This document shows positions 4,059 through 7,523 of a stretch of 64,000 bases of DNA, piece by piece. Below the pieces are notes generated by a model. The model was given only the letters and a program-made list of their open reading frames with translations. It ran no database searches and was not told where the DNA came from. Source of the stretch: Clostridium brassicae (lineage in GTDB: Bacteria; Bacillota; Clostridia; Clostridiales; Clostridiaceae); contig NZ_JAPQFJ010000001.1 in NCBI RefSeq assembly GCF_026738875.1, positions 310,001 to 374,000 of the forward strand. Reading direction: 5' to 3'. Position 1 is the first letter of the stretch; each line of letters begins with the position of its first letter. A program made the position numbers and the translations under genes.

Positions 4059-4502
4059 ATGAAAAAAATTAAAAAAGTTATTGTAATGTGTACATTGTGT
4101 GGAACTTTAGCTATAGGAATTTCAACAATTTCATTTGCTCACAATAGTGAAGCGCAAAAAGCTTATGGAGGATGGAGTGAATCAAGAGGATATTATTCCA
4201 ATGTTGGAACTAGATCATCTAGAAGTGTTAGGAGTGTTAGAAGTTCTAGTCCTAAGTCTCATACAGGAAAAAGATTAATGAAGTGGATGGATAATTCTGG
4301 AACTGCTGGTTTTGCTTCATATGGAGAAACTATATGGCCAAACACTAAACACTATACAACTGCTCGAATGGAAAATAGTCATGGAGCTGTAAGAACAACA
4401 AGTGGTAGAAAATGGGGGGTAGGTTATACAGAGGCCACTTCACCATATTATGTACCTAGATGGCTTGAAAATATAGAAGCTAGAACATATTGGGGTCATT
4501 AA
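4059..4502 (+). CDS. Secreted basic peptide, lactococcin-972-like bacteriocin candidate
   Basis: A 147-residue precursor with a Sec signal peptide (basic MKKIKK, a hydrophobic run, cleavage probably after ISFA near residue 27). The exported part is small, basic and free of cysteine. It has an Arg-Ser-rich stretch near residues 50-65 and an aromatic C-terminal half (KHYTTARMENSHG, SGRKWGVGYTEA, ARTYWGH). The pattern Lys-His-x-Ser/Thr followed by an Asn-Gly turn and a Gly-x-Trp turn resembles mature lactococcin 972, aligned by eye only. The following genes encode permeases and an ATPase of the kind that accompanies that bacteriocin family. The ribosome site GGGGGG is strong. A 22-bp hairpin follows the stop. 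Another small secreted toxin or adhesin is possible. Confidence 0.6.
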   Translation: MKKIKKVIVMCTLCGTLAIGISTISFAHNSEAQKAYGGWSESRGYYSNVGTRSSRSVRSVRSSSPKSHTGKRLMKWMDNSGTAGFASYGETIWPNTKHYTTARMENSHGAVRTTSGRKWGVGYTEATSPYYVPRWLENIEARTYWGH

Positions 4503-4514
4503 TCAATATTTTAA

Positions 4515-4561
4515 AAATACAAGACTATTTATTAATGATATTAATAAATAGTCTTGTATTT
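4515..4561 (+). terminator. Long hairpin between precursor and transporter genes
   Basis: A perfect 22-bp stem (4515-4536 and 4540-4561) with a 3-base loop begins 12 bases after the precursor stop and ends 16 bases before the transporter start. There is no long T tail. It probably works as a partial terminator or RNA stabiliser, giving more precursor than transporter message. Confidence 0.7.
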
Positions 4562-4577
4562 AGAAATGAGGTTATTT

Positions 4578-5540
4578 ATGTATTATTTAAAGAAAAAGAA
4601 TATTATATTTATTGTTTTTTTTATTTGTCTTAATTTATTTGCTTTTTCTTTTTTAGTATATACAGTTCATCAAAAACAACTTAGTGAATTATCAAATGGA
4701 CTTTATACAAGAAATTATGTTGTATTCAATGATAATGAACCACAAAAATATATTGAGAATTTAAATAACAATAACGAATGCAGAGTATTTATTGAATACA
4801 ATGATGTATTTAGATTTTTTGCTCAAAAAAATGAAAAATGGAAACCTCCTATGCAAAAAGGAAGTTTTTTCTCGGAGAATATAAAAGGAAGAAAAGCTGT
4901 AGTTGGAAAAGAAATGGTAAAACATATAAAGAAATATAATGGTAAAGATTATATTTCTTTTCAAGAAGAAGACTATGAAGTCATAGGAGTTATGGGAGCT
5001 TCTTTTGTAAGTCGAGCAGATTATCTTATTTTATTACAGGGTGAAAAAATTCCTACAACTGGTAGAATGAAAGTGATTGTAGATAGCAACGGTAAATCTA
5101 CAATAAATAAAATGGTAAATGATATTACTAAAGAATATAAAAAAACATCTTATGTTCAAGGTATATCAAAAGGTTTATATAAAACAGCTAATACTACTTT
5201 TTTTTATAGGTTACTTAGCATAGATTCATTTTTATTAATAATTTGCAGTATATTTATATATCTACGCTACTGGTATGAAAAAGAAAAGGTTACGATGTAT
5301 GTTATGTTTTTATTAGGGATTCCTCGGAAAACAATAATAGGTGAAAATATAAAAAAGATTAGTTTAAATGTATTAATTGCTAGTTTTATAGCAAATATCA
5401 TATTTTTATTGAAAGATAATATTTCCTTTCATATCATAAAAGAAATTGTTTTTGTTGACATTTTTTTTCTTATTAGTTCTTGTATATTTGCATTAATATT
5501 TATGATTAAAGCACCTATTGATAATGTATTTGGAAAGTGA
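4578..5540 (+). CDS. MacB/FtsX-like half permease A
   Basis: A membrane protein of 320 residues from the ATG at 4578, chosen because TGAGGT lies 6 bases before it; an upstream in-frame TTG at 4554 falls in the hairpin. Topology: one N-terminal helix (about 10-28), an extracytoplasmic domain of about 170 residues with MacB-like strands (VVGKEMV, YEVIGVMGA), then about three helices in the C-terminal 110 residues. With the next gene it resembles the two halves of the 7-8-helix membrane protein found with lactococcin-972 bacteriocins. It probably forms a heterodimeric exporter or immunity pump with half permease B and the ATPase. Confidence 0.65.
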   Translation: MYYLKKKNIIFIVFFICLNLFAFSFLVYTVHQKQLSELSNGLYTRNYVVFNDNEPQKYIENLNNNNECRVFIEYNDVFRFFAQKNEKWKPPMQKGSFFSENIKGRKAVVGKEMVKHIKKYNGKDYISFQEEDYEVIGVMGASFVSRADYLILLQGEKIPTTGRMKVIVDSNGKSTINKMVNDITKEYKKTSYVQGISKGLYKTANTTFFYRLLSIDSFLLIICSIFIYLRYWYEKEKVTMYVMFLLGIPRKTIIGENIKKISLNVLIASFIANIIFLLKDNISFHIIKEIVFVDIFFLISSCIFALIFMIKAPIDNVFGK

Positions 5541-5551
5541 GGAGTTGTAAG

Positions 5552-6850
5552 ATGAGATTTAAGGAACTTCTTTTATATTTAAAAAAATATAAAGTTATGG
5601 TAGCAATTACTTATTTACAAATAACTATATTTTTAATTCTTTTAGGAGCATTTCTCTCTTTTACTGATGCATTAAATTATGAAGAAGATGGTTTAAAAAA
5701 GGTATATGAAGGAAAGGCAATATATCAACTTATTGACGGTTATTATGATGAAGACGATTTTTCAAATTTTGCTGATCAGTCAGATGCATTAGTAAAGCTA
5801 AAAAATTTTTATAATAGTTTAGATAATGCTGATAACTTTCAATATCTTACAATGATGAATCAGTATGTTGGTATACAAAATAAGAATATACCTGAAACAA
5901 TGATCGAGGGTCATGAAACAGGAAAAAACTTTCCCAAAGTAGAATTAGATGGTAAAAGCTATACGCCAGTTAAATCCCTTCAAATGAATCAACAAGCTTT
6001 TAAGTTTTTTAATTTAGATGTATCTAAGGGAAGAAAATGGGAAGAAGATGATTTTAAGTATAAAAAAGATGCTATACCTGTTTTACTAGGGGATTCTTAT
6101 AAAAATGTATATAAAATAGGAGAAAAATTCACTATAAATTATTATTTTAAAGATATTAATGTAAAAGTAATTGGTTTTTTTAAGGAAAATAGTAAAGTGT
6201 TATATAATGGAGAACCAGAGTTTTACTTAGATAGATATATAGTATTACCATATCAGAATTACAATACTCCAGTATCTAAAAAAGATTGTGAGTTTCAAAA
6301 AATTACTTATTTTGCAATGGTTAATGGATATGTTGTAACAGACAATGATCCTGTTAAAATTCGAAATATGATGGAAGACGTAGAGGTTATATCTCAAATG
6401 AGTTCATTTAGTAAATATTCTTTTGTTGGATTTAATCCACATTTACAAAAATATAATGGATTAATGATGGTTATACAAGAAAACAGTAAATTAATAAGAA
6501 TAATTTTTTTGGTTGCTTTTGGGTTGAATTTGTTTTTGGTAAGTTTAGTATTATTCCTACAGCAAAAACGACGACTTCCTTTTTATGCAATTCACTATAT
6601 GCAAGGAGCTACAAAATTTAATTTGATAATACAACAATGGCTAGAAATAAGCAGCATAATGTTAATGTCATTTTTCACTTATATAGTTATACTAGATGAA
6701 GTATTAATGATAGGCTCCTATAAAATACATTTAATATTGTTTGTATTACTTTTTATAATTAGCATTATTTTATCTTTTATATCCTCATATCAATTAATAC
6801 ATAAACCACTTACAGATTATTTACTAATGGATGAAGAAAGGGTGAGATGA
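5552..6850 (+). CDS. MacB/FtsX-like half permease B
   Basis: A membrane protein of 432 residues from the ATG at 5552, with GAGGAG 7 bases before it. It has the same plan as permease A: one N-terminal helix (about 15-35), a large outer domain (about 40-310) and three C-terminal helices with a cytoplasmic QQKRR patch between the first two. The outer domain contains MacB-core-like strands (VPVLLGDSYKN, VIGFFKEN). It starts 11 bases after permease A and stops 1 base before the ATPase ATG. The larger outer domain may determine which peptide is recognised. Not recognised at the level of a named protein. Confidence 0.65.
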   Translation: MRFKELLLYLKKYKVMVAITYLQITIFLILLGAFLSFTDALNYEEDGLKKVYEGKAIYQLIDGYYDEDDFSNFADQSDALVKLKNFYNSLDNADNFQYLTMMNQYVGIQNKNIPETMIEGHETGKNFPKVELDGKSYTPVKSLQMNQQAFKFFNLDVSKGRKWEEDDFKYKKDAIPVLLGDSYKNVYKIGEKFTINYYFKDINVKVIGFFKENSKVLYNGEPEFYLDRYIVLPYQNYNTPVSKKDCEFQKITYFAMVNGYVVTDNDPVKIRNMMEDVEVISQMSSFSKYSFVGFNPHLQKYNGLMMVIQENSKLIRIIFLVAFGLNLFLVSLVLFLQQKRRLPFYAIHYMQGATKFNLIIQQWLEISSIMLMSFFTYIVILDEVLMIGSYKIHLILFVLLFIISIILSFISSYQLIHKPLTDYLLMDEERVR

Positions 6851-6851
6851 T

Positions 6852-7523
6852 ATGTTGATAGAGCTTTGTAAAATAACTAAAAAAGTTAAGAATGGTAGTA
6901 AGTATAAAAACATTTTAAAAAATTTAGATCTTAAAGTTTATCCAGGAGATTATATTGCTATTAAAGGTAGAAGTGGTTCGGGAAAATCCACTCTTTTAAA
7001 CATTTTAGGGGGACTAATACCCTTTGAAGCAGGTGAAATGTTTTTTAAAGGAAAAAATATAACAAAGACTTCTTTAGATGAAAGGGCAAAATACCGCAGA
7101 GAATATATAGGATTTATAACTCAACAGTTTAATTTGTTAGATGACAGAAATGTATTTGAAAATATTGCACTTCCATTACAATATGCTAAATTTCCTGAGA
7201 AAGAGATAAAGAAGGAAGTAATAAATACTTTGAGTAAATTAGATATGAAAGAGTTTATAGACAAGCCTATTTCAAATTTATCTGGTGGAGAGAAACAACG
7301 TATAGCTATTGCCAGAGCAATTATTAAAAAACCTTCAATCATACTAGCAGATGAGCCAACAGGTTCCTTAGATGAAAAAACAGAAGAAAGTATCTTAAAT
7401 ATTTTTGATAATCTTCAAAAACAAGGAATAACAATTATAATGGTTACACATTCAAATGAATTAGCAAATCGCTGTAGATATATTTATCAATTGGAAGGAG
7501 GCTTTTTAAGAAAAAGTTTTTAA
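6852..7523 (+). CDS. ABC transporter ATPase of the bacteriocin-like cassette
   Basis: A 223-residue nucleotide-binding subunit of the LolD/MacB family. It has Walker A GRSGSGKST (about 38-46), a Q loop in ITQQFNLLDD, signature LSGGEKQRIAIARA, Walker B ILADEPTGSLD and the H-loop VTHS. The QQFNLLDDRNVFENI segment and overall length fit the ATPases associated with lactococcin-972-type clusters. It starts 1 base after half permease B and is probably coupled to it. It would energise export of the 4059 peptide or removal of it from the membrane (self-immunity). The transporter assignment is firm. The substrate is inferred from context. Confidence 0.85.
   Translation: MLIELCKITKKVKNGSKYKNILKNLDLKVYPGDYIAIKGRSGSGKSTLLNILGGLIPFEAGEMFFKGKNITKTSLDERAKYRREYIGFITQQFNLLDDRNVFENIALPLQYAKFPEKEIKKEVINTLSKLDMKEFIDKPISNLSGGEKQRIAIARAIIKKPSIILADEPTGSLDEKTEESILNIFDNLQKQGITIIMVTHSNELANRCRYIYQLEGGFLRKSF

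What the first reader, a model, noticed from the sequence alone, without database searches (positions are those of the whole stretch)
4059..7523. Four-gene bacteriocin-like cassette with a split permease
A Sec-secreted, cysteine-free basic peptide is followed by two half-size MacB/FtsX-like membrane proteins and an ATPase, all tightly spaced. The composition recalls lactococcin-972 loci (precursor, one 7-8-helix membrane protein, ATPase). Here the membrane protein appears as two separate genes of the same one-helix/outer-domain/three-helix plan. The precursor C-terminal half shows a Lys-His-x-Ser/Thr and Gly-x-Trp pattern like mature lactococcin 972, but it is larger (about 120 exported residues) and has an Arg-Ser stretch not known to me in that family. 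If confirmed, it is a diverged clostridial branch.
Basis: partly seen in the sequence, partly recalled or inferred. Interest (0 to 1): 0.72.

Follow-up and report, generated by a model that had tools for sequence, protein, structure and literature searches.

The report
Mobile bacteriocin-like peptide and pump cassette
A small secreted protein and a three-gene membrane pump travel together as one unit through many Gram-positive bacteria; it looks like an undescribed kind of bacterial weapon with its own self-protection pump, but no activity has been shown.

Summary
The four genes are real: a 147-aa Sec-type precursor, two half-size MacB/FtsX-type permeases and an ATPase (4059-7523). The same order recurs in Sarcina, Paenibacillus, Priestia, Vagococcus and unnamed Bacillota: 14 complete loci, 2 cut by contig ends, 1 reduced. 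All 13 accepted precursor-search hits lie beside transporter genes; four weak hits were not inspected, one (E 0.9) was dropped. The window's genome has a second, divergent cassette behind a LytTR/histidine-kinase pair. A sister species lacks the window cassette at the same site (4160 bp against 73 bp). A stem-loop of differing sequence follows the precursor in 8 of 10 loci examined. Lactococcin 972 membership was tested and not met for the precursor: no Pfam, NCBIfam or PDB match, and only weak hints in shuffle tests. No DUF1430 match either, although profile comparison of whole permeases is compatible with a split DUF1430 protein; their outer domains do not match it. Structure prediction was uninformative. 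Basic charge, lack of cysteine and the Arg-Ser stretch are not family features. Best reading: a mobile bacteriocin-type cassette, a Sec-exported antimicrobial with a two-permease MacB-type self-protection pump. It works like lactococcin 972 loci but is not shown to belong to them. Function is inferred (0.57).

The parts
3623..7782 (.). Whole variable segment: present here, replaced by 73 bp in the sister species genome G143 (gain here or loss there)
   Evidence: BLASTN of window against G143: flanks 96.7% identical (2124 columns) and 93.9% (1557 columns), nothing shared between
3967..3995 (+). Promoter-like site TTGAAA-17-TATAAT, 63 bp before the precursor ATG
   Evidence: 11 of 12 consensus bases; the region holds no more such sites than shuffles (35 against 34.6), so position is the only argument
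4059..4502 (+). Precursor, 147 aa: signal peptide of about 27 aa, then about 120 aa; C-terminal core W..T.HYT.ARM...SGR.WG...A.S...ARTYWG
   Evidence: ORF; core conserved in the alignment of 16 matures; no known family
4515..4561 (+). Stem-loop, 22-bp stem with 3-nt loop, between precursor and pump genes; likely attenuator or processing site
   Evidence: -27.3 kcal/mol, z -8 against dinucleotide shuffles; by eye a stem of different sequence at the same place in 8 of 10 loci examined
4578..5540 (+). Permease A, half-size FtsX/MacB-type, 320 aa
   Evidence: Pfam FtsX 0.005; relatives in the other cassettes
5552..6850 (+). Permease B, half-size MacB-type with larger outer domain, 432 aa
   Evidence: Pfam MacB_PCD 7.2e-6, just under cut-off; relatives
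6852..7523 (+). ABC ATPase, 223 aa
   Evidence: ABC_tran 2.4e-34; best NCBIfam TIGR03608 at 223 bits, cut-off 254.85, next LolD 204.9
7656..7782 (+). Broken short frame at the 3' end of the variable segment, possibly a remnant of a mobile-element gene
   Evidence: one stop in frame; no Pfam or NCBIfam match for the 44-aa piece behind the stop; 'transposase-like' is recall only

Best explanation
This is a horizontally moving bacteriocin-type cassette of a family that no library used here names. The precursor is exported by Sec, loses its signal peptide and acts outside the cell as a small folded protein (about 75 to 135 aa in the relatives) against close competitors, probably at the cell envelope. 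The two half-permeases pair as a heterodimer on the one ATPase, like a LolCDE/MacB-type (type VII) ABC machine. They protect the producer by driving the peptide off its own membrane or envelope target, and are not needed for crossing the membrane. A stem-loop behind the structural gene keeps peptide output high and pump output low. Shown: gene content, order, recurrence, Sec-type leader, FtsX/MacB-type permeases, stem-loop position, presence/absence at one site between sister species, plasmid carriage. Inferred: antimicrobial activity, target, immunity role, heterodimer, direction of the gain.
For: Four-gene order in 14 complete loci, among them Clostridiaceae, Bacillales and Lactobacillales. 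13 of 13 accepted precursor-search hits lie beside transporter genes (hits; neighbourhoods). Small plasmids carry it: Sarcina 11.3 kb, Vagococcus 11.1 kb, and a reduced form in Terrisporobacter 5.6 kb; lactococcin 972 sits on an 11-kb plasmid. Present/absent between sister species. Stem-loop after the precursor in 8 of 10 loci. Regulators near some cassettes: LytTR response regulator plus GHKL kinase at the second own cassette, HTH genes near G261 and P. apiarius. Transporters without an intact family precursor are common (8 of 14 permease-B loci; G186), a pattern that suits an immunity module. MacB-type machines do work outside the membrane and one protects against an own killing peptide (PMC5985334, passages).
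Against: No activity data. Libraries name nothing in the peptide. Charge and Cys content vary, so no common membrane-lytic mechanism. The ATPase match to the bacteriocin-export model is not discriminating: 5 other ATPases of the same genome score higher. Orphan transporters could equally mean an independent transporter function. In Sarcina p1 the ATPase also lacks residues behind Walker B, so that copy looks like plain decay, not kept immunity. No regulator was seen beside the window cassette. Loci found through permease B (Vagococcus, Terrisporobacter, G414, G415) cannot count for linkage. Plasmid carriage is partly an effect of searching a plasmid collection.
Confidence: 0.57

Rival explanations
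1. A true member of the lactococcin 972 family that has diverged beyond sequence detection: same beta-sandwich, same lipid II target, with the DUF1430 protein split into two genes.
For: Same layout (Sec precursor, permease, ATPase). Similar landmarks along the mature peptide (G-W near the N-terminus, H in the middle, A-x-x-Y-Y at the end; by eye). Precedent: mediterrocin has 18% identity to the lactococcin 972 core but is annotated to the family and predicted alike (PMC12345188, passages). hhalign prefers A with the DUF1430 N-half and B with its C-half (88 against 61%, 97 against 58%; same order), above seven FtsX controls (42% and 56%). G261 has a fused DUF1430 protein directly downstream of a cassette. 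Weak hints in shuffle tests (11 of 300, 16 of 1000, 19 of 1000).
Against: No match to PF09683 or TIGR01653 at E<=10. hhalign of peptides 1.75% over 24 columns in a register that pairs different motifs (5 of 300 column permutations reach the score) and 0.07% (83 of 200); a full-length run gave 22%, on the signal peptide. Outer domains of the permeases do not match those of DUF1430 (1.3% or less; single proteins 0.1 to 5.7%). As single sequences the window permeases match the DUF1430 halves no better than FtsX controls do. No 2LGN among the 50 Foldseek rows shown for a weak model.
Confidence: 0.25
2. The peptide is a signal or pheromone (or its precursor) and the MacB-type transporter senses or exports it, comparable to vex123-pep27 of pneumococcus (recalled).
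For: Kinase and response regulator next to the second cassette; HTH genes near others; two-permease plus ATPase layout.
Against: Mature products of about 75-135 aa are large for pheromones; no kinase beside the window cassette; conserved aromatic core suggests a folded protein.
Confidence: 0.1
3. A MacB/Lol-type housekeeping transporter with a secreted partner protein (for example lipoprotein or lipid release, or envelope-stress relief).
For: MacB_PCD-type domains; permease A and B profiles weakly hit LolF and MacB structures (E 0.02-0.06); ATPase close to LolD/FtsE.
Against: Patchy presence (precursor in 4 of 398 phylum genomes; in none of the 7 other genomes of the genus), plasmid carriage and presence/absence at one site do not suit housekeeping.
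Confidence: 0.08

Closest known systems
Lactococcin 972 operon (lcn972-orf2-orf3, plasmid pBL1)
   Same: Sec-type precursor gene followed by FtsX-type membrane protein and ATPase; plasmid-borne (PMC4055356, passages)
   Different: Precursor not of PF09683/TIGR01653; one fused 648-aa DUF1430 protein there, two genes without a DUF1430 match here; three genes against four
Mediterrocin and streptococcin B clusters
   Same: Sec-exported lactococcin 972-like peptide with a membrane protein and ATPase (PMC12345188, PMC11796350, passages)
   Different: Both are named as lactococcin 972 family members, mediterrocin with a DUF1430 protein; the window's precursor matches no such family
LolCDE / MacB / YknXYZ type VII ABC machines
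   Same: Half-size 4-helix permeases with outer domain; two different permeases on one ATPase as in LolCDE (PMC5985334, passages)
   Different: Gene-linked to a secreted peptide; no adaptor (MacA/YknX) gene in the unit
vex123-pep27 locus of pneumococcus
   Same: Two permeases, an ATPase and a peptide gene together (recalled)
   Different: Pep27 is a 27-aa peptide unrelated in sequence (recalled; not compared here)

Membership tests
Lactococcin 972 family | Precursor matches PF09683 / TIGR01653 | tested here: not met
   0 families at E<=10 for the window and two relatives; no PF09683 for five further cassette peptides at E<=10 and for Vagococcus and Terrisporobacter at E<=1; lactococcin 972 itself scores 55.5 and 108.6 bits
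Lactococcin 972 family | Profile-level relation of mature peptides | tested here: not met
   Window peptide against lactococcin 972 profile: 169 of 300 shuffles score as high; best of 15 peptides 11 of 300; reverse test best 16 of 1000 among 6, 19 of 1000 with the 16-row profile; hhalign 1.75% (5 of 300 permutations as high) and 0.07%
Lactococcin 972 family | Two-sheet beta-sandwich fold (2LGN) | tested here: inconclusive
   AlphaFold of mature part pLDDT 37, of the 61-aa core pLDDT 61 with three strands and a doubtful helix; no Foldseek hit at E<=0.001 and no 2LGN in the 50 rows shown of 555
Lactococcin 972 family | DUF1430 / TIGR01654 membrane protein next to the precursor | tested here: not met
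   No DUF1430 or TIGR01654 match for permease A or B at E<=10; the second own permease has DUF1430 at E 2.3; control lactococcin 972 protein 5.9e-22 and 706 bits. Distant kinship of the membrane parts stays open
Lactococcin 972 family | ATPase above TIGR03608 cut-off | tested here: not met
   223 bits, cut-off 254.85; but lactococcin 972's own ATPase has 253.4, so the cut-off is tight; its margin over the next model is 85 bits, the window's 18
Lactococcin 972 family | Lipid II binding, septum inhibition | not testable with these tools
   needs bench work
MacB/type VII ABC transporters | One helix, outer MacB_PCD-type domain, C-terminal FtsX helices | tested here: inconclusive
   Topology fits. 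MacB_PCD 26.9 bits for window B, cut-off 27; over cut-off for A of G261 and for B of the second own cassette. Outer domains do not match those of seven FtsX permeases of the own genome (1.35% for B, 3.6% for A)
Bacteriocins (functional class) | Secreted ribosomal product that kills relatives, with producer immunity | not testable with these tools
   only genomic context available

The most novel reading that the evidence does not exclude
An undescribed phylum-wide class of secreted antimicrobial proteins, each paired with a two-half MacB-type self-protection machine, spread by plasmids and small insertions through Bacillota, with at least two peptide subtypes (window type and C22 type) in one genome and transporters often kept or decaying after peptide loss.
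Probability: 0.43. Interest if true: 0.65.

Novelty: new variant of a known kind. Interest (0 to 1): 0.5.

Why it matters
If true, it adds a bacteriocin-type family that the profile libraries used here miss. It also gives a simple system (one peptide, two permeases, one ATPase) for asking how MacB-type machines give immunity to a Sec-exported peptide. For lactococcin 972 loci one paper calls the role of these genes unverified (PMC11796350, passages), although strains carrying the whole lcn972 cluster are resistant (PMC4055356, passages).

Tried and rejected
Lactococcin 972 membership of the precursor: tested by Pfam, NCBIfam, PDB sequence search, HMM against shuffles in both directions, and hhalign against column permutations; not supported at sequence level.

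Split DUF1430: hhalign gave 97% for B with the C-half. My first MacB control (outer domain of B 91% to eight own-genome permeases) turned out to be flawed, because one of the eight (L012) is permease B of the second own cassette. Without it the outer-domain match falls to 1.35%, and the seven remaining controls match the DUF1430 halves at 42 and 56%. So neither 'ordinary MacB' nor 'split DUF1430' is settled; I raised the lactococcin 972 rival from 0.22 to 0.25 and lowered the best reading from 0.6 to 0.57 and the novel case from 0.45 to 0.43 for this. A DUF1430 C-half profile finds nothing in the own genome.

TIGR03608 as evidence for bacteriocin export: rejected, since 5 other ATPases of the genome score higher; the highest of them is the ATPase of the second own cassette.

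Structure: two AlphaFold jobs with three sequences each were too shallow; the Foldseek search of the better model gave nothing.

Known RNA: none in the window at gathering score; two hits in 3000-9000 far below gathering score judged chance.

Phage carriage: no match in phages or in viral contigs. The Streptomyces plasmid hit of the C22 peptide (E 0.9, no ABC genes beside it) was dropped. Virgibacillus secreted protein with a MacB_PCD lipoprotein: not counted. Terrisporobacter (28% identity to the window precursor) is a weak member and counted only as reduced.

Not followed: four weak precursor hits in G833, G669, G865 and G960 (E 9e-4 to 0.0085); the PF09683 hit in G303 with a stop (fetched, not read); locus L070. 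The class and phylum samples overlap and contain the own genome. The genome search scored at most 10 candidates per genome and at most 4, so those counts are lower bounds.
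Full report
OBSERVATION. The four genes exist as described. Precursor 4059-4502; permease A to 5540 (ATG 4578 preferred); permease B 5552-6850; ATPase 6852-7523, with gaps of 75, 11 and 1 nt. Pfam gives FtsX 0.005 for A, MacB_PCD 7.2e-6 for B (26.9 bits, cut-off 27) and ABC_tran 2.4e-34 for the ATPase, and nothing for the precursor at E<=10; NCBIfam gives nothing for the precursor.

RELATIVES. A single-sequence scan of genome contigs found none. 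tblastn of the precursor found Sarcina sp. JB2 plasmid p6 (47% identity, 2e-26) and two P. polymyxa plasmids (34%, 4e-7; both carry the same protein) among 72,556 plasmid records, and none in 50,697 phage records. With the Sarcina peptide as query, a truncated copy on Sarcina p1 and a Priestia megaterium plasmid were added. A three-row profile found P. apiarius and P. popilliae in the genome contigs, through degenerate patterns, so a lower bound. Permease B added Vagococcus fluvialis and Terrisporobacter plasmids. An eight-row profile over 391 genomes of the class gave 6 hits: the own genome, G780 and four weak ones that were not inspected. Over 398 genomes of the phylum it gave 4: own, G516, G261, G214. 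The permease B survey added G414 and G415. The ATPase ranking led to a second cassette in the own genome (C22), and a search with its peptide (3 of 180 family genomes) added G156 and a broken copy in G186.

LINKAGE. 17 loci with an intact precursor (16 distinct proteins): 14 have A, B and ATPase (window, L002, L003, L004, L005, L006, L008, L009, L039, L040, L041, L042, L063, L082), 2 are cut by contig ends (L035, L067), and 1 has only permease B (L010). Thirteen loci, two of them with a broken precursor, were found by precursor search alone, and 13 of 13 have transporter genes beside them; dropped before this count were the four uninspected weak hits and one Streptomyces hit at E 0.9 without ABC genes. 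In the other direction, permease B at E<=1e-15 marks 14 loci in 12 of 398 genomes (15 matches, one broken gene in two pieces; at most 4 candidates scored per genome). 6 have a family precursor, 1 (G219) has a different secreted peptide gene, and 7 have none that I found. Of these 7, G537 is partly masked upstream, G512 has a broken permease B, and G300 has a short ORF that may be a remnant, by eye.

THE PEPTIDE. 15 matures were compared: pI 5.3 to 10.0, Cys in 7 of 15, lengths about 75 to 135. The window's Arg-Ser run lies in a variable region absent from the shortest member (G214, 75 aa). The conserved part is the C-terminal core: W, then HYT/S.AR, then S/T-G-R-x-W/Y, an A-x-S/T, and A.TYYG/W at the end; a [STG]-G-[RQ] motif is found in 15 of 16 matures. 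The C22 peptide is recognised by the 14-row mature profile (13.7 bits, 1 of 1000 shuffles as high), but hardly by the 12-row full-length one (1.0 bit), so it is a second, divergent subtype.

MOBILITY. In the sister species G143 the flanking genes are 96% and 92% identical in protein and the DNA matches up to window 3622 and again from 7783; between them the sister has 73 bp against 4160 bp here. The precursor is absent from the 7 other genomes of the genus and from the rest of 206 family genomes at E<=0.01, which favours gain here over loss there. Five of the seven named complete loci are on plasmids (L002, L003, L004, L008, L009), partly because a plasmid collection was searched.

STEM-LOOP. 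Between precursor and permease A lies a 22-bp stem (z -8). I examined 10 of the 14 complete loci: by eye 8 have a strong local stem of unrelated sequence, G516 has none, and in G414 the genes overlap. Of 9 folded spacers, 7 lie more than 2 sd below mononucleotide shuffles; G261 and G516 do not. I read it as an attenuator or processing site that sets a high peptide-to-pump ratio (inference).

REGULATORS. The second own cassette stands behind a LytTR response regulator and a GHKL kinase. HTH genes lie near the G261 and P. apiarius cassettes; a weak RNPP_C match (24.1 bits, cut-off 26.5) was seen only in the HTH gene beside another G261 transporter set that has no peptide. Vagococcus has two HTH genes and Priestia a MerR-type gene nearby. 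Beside the window cassette I saw none.

TRANSPORTER. The ATPase has TIGR03608 as best model in the window and in 5 of 5 further cassettes tested, but with small margins over FtsE, LolD or DarD (2 to 23 bits), where lactococcin 972's own ATPase stands 85 bits clear. In the own genome 103 matches include 5 that score higher than the window's ATPase. hhalign pairs B with the DUF1430 C-half (97%) and A with the N-half (88%) in preference to the reverse (58%, 61%; same order with fewer rows), which is collinear. My first control seemed to show that the outer domain of B is ordinary MacB (91%), but it contained permease B of the C22 cassette; without it the figure is 1.35%, and seven FtsX permeases of the same genome match the DUF1430 halves at 42% and 56%. 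Outer domains of DUF1430 proteins do not match B (1.3%; 0.1 to 5.7% one by one). As single sequences the window permeases match the DUF1430 halves no better than controls do, while G261's B does (72%). So the permeases are of FtsX/MacB type, with MacB_PCD matches in several members; whether they are specifically the halves of a DUF1430 protein is open.

LACTOCOCCIN 972 TEST. Positive controls worked: PF09683 55.5 bits, TIGR01653 108.6 bits and PDB 2LGN for lactococcin 972 itself. The window family matched no such model. Hints: lactococcin 972 against the 16-row profile (19 of 1000 shuffles as high), L. amylovorus against the 14-row profile (16 of 1000) and the C22 peptide against the lactococcin profile (11 of 300), and a core-to-core hhalign score reached by 5 of 300 permutations but at 1.75% probability and in a register that pairs different motifs. 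Among this many tests none counts as proof; the window peptide itself is at chance (169 of 300). Structure prediction was too weak to decide.

LITERATURE. Read as passages only: PMC12345188, PMC11796350, PMC4055356, PMC6527061, PMC5985334, PMC7859188, PMC4289311. They describe lactococcin 972-like loci, MacB-type transporters and the Sarcina genome. A text search of the Sarcina paper found no 'bacteriocin'. Searches around this four-gene type listed no paper whose title or abstract start describes it; the listed papers were not read through, and only open-licence papers are held.

MECHANISM. Sec export follows from the leader (established knowledge). MacB-type machines use ATP to do work outside the membrane, and YknXYZ protects against an own killing peptide (PMC5985334, passages). 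Together with mobility and transporters that occur without the peptide, this makes peptide plus self-protection the most likely reading, at 0.57.

Noticed in passing
L042 (own genome contig C22, 16500-27644), 1887-7673: Second four-gene cassette of the same genome with another peptide subtype, directly behind a LytTR response regulator and a GHKL histidine kinase; a complete relative lies in G156 (L082).
   Followed up: partly
L040 8125-10335 (G261): A fused DUF1430 protein (31.5 bits, cut-off 28.2) directly behind a complete two-permease cassette; a second transporter set without precursor lies just upstream (L060).
   Followed up: partly
L023 4434-8056 (G219): A borderline lactococcin 972-type precursor stands between a half-size FtsX-like protein and a fused DUF1430-like protein; the same genome has a different peptide with half-permeases (L069).
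   Followed up: no
L010 4855-5412 and L035 2396-2929: VanZ-family genes near the peptide genes in Terrisporobacter and G780; possibly extra protection, chance not excluded.
   Followed up: no
L011 4036-5552 (Virgibacillus plasmid): A secreted protein gene followed by a lipoprotein-like protein with a MacB_PCD-like domain (24.7 bits, under cut-off).
   Followed up: no
L007 3820-6900 (Sarcina p1): Decaying copy: precursor truncated to 40 aa and ATPase lacking residues behind Walker B; both permease frames open.
   Followed up: partly
L043 3073-6096 (own genome contig C45): Two half-size FtsX-type permeases plus ATPase with no peptide gene seen beside them; the outer domain of the second matches the family's permease B (95.9%).
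   Followed up: partly
window 7579-7650: Short inverted repeat (GAGATTCAC / GTGAATCTC) beside the broken frame at the 3' end of the variable segment.
   Followed up: no
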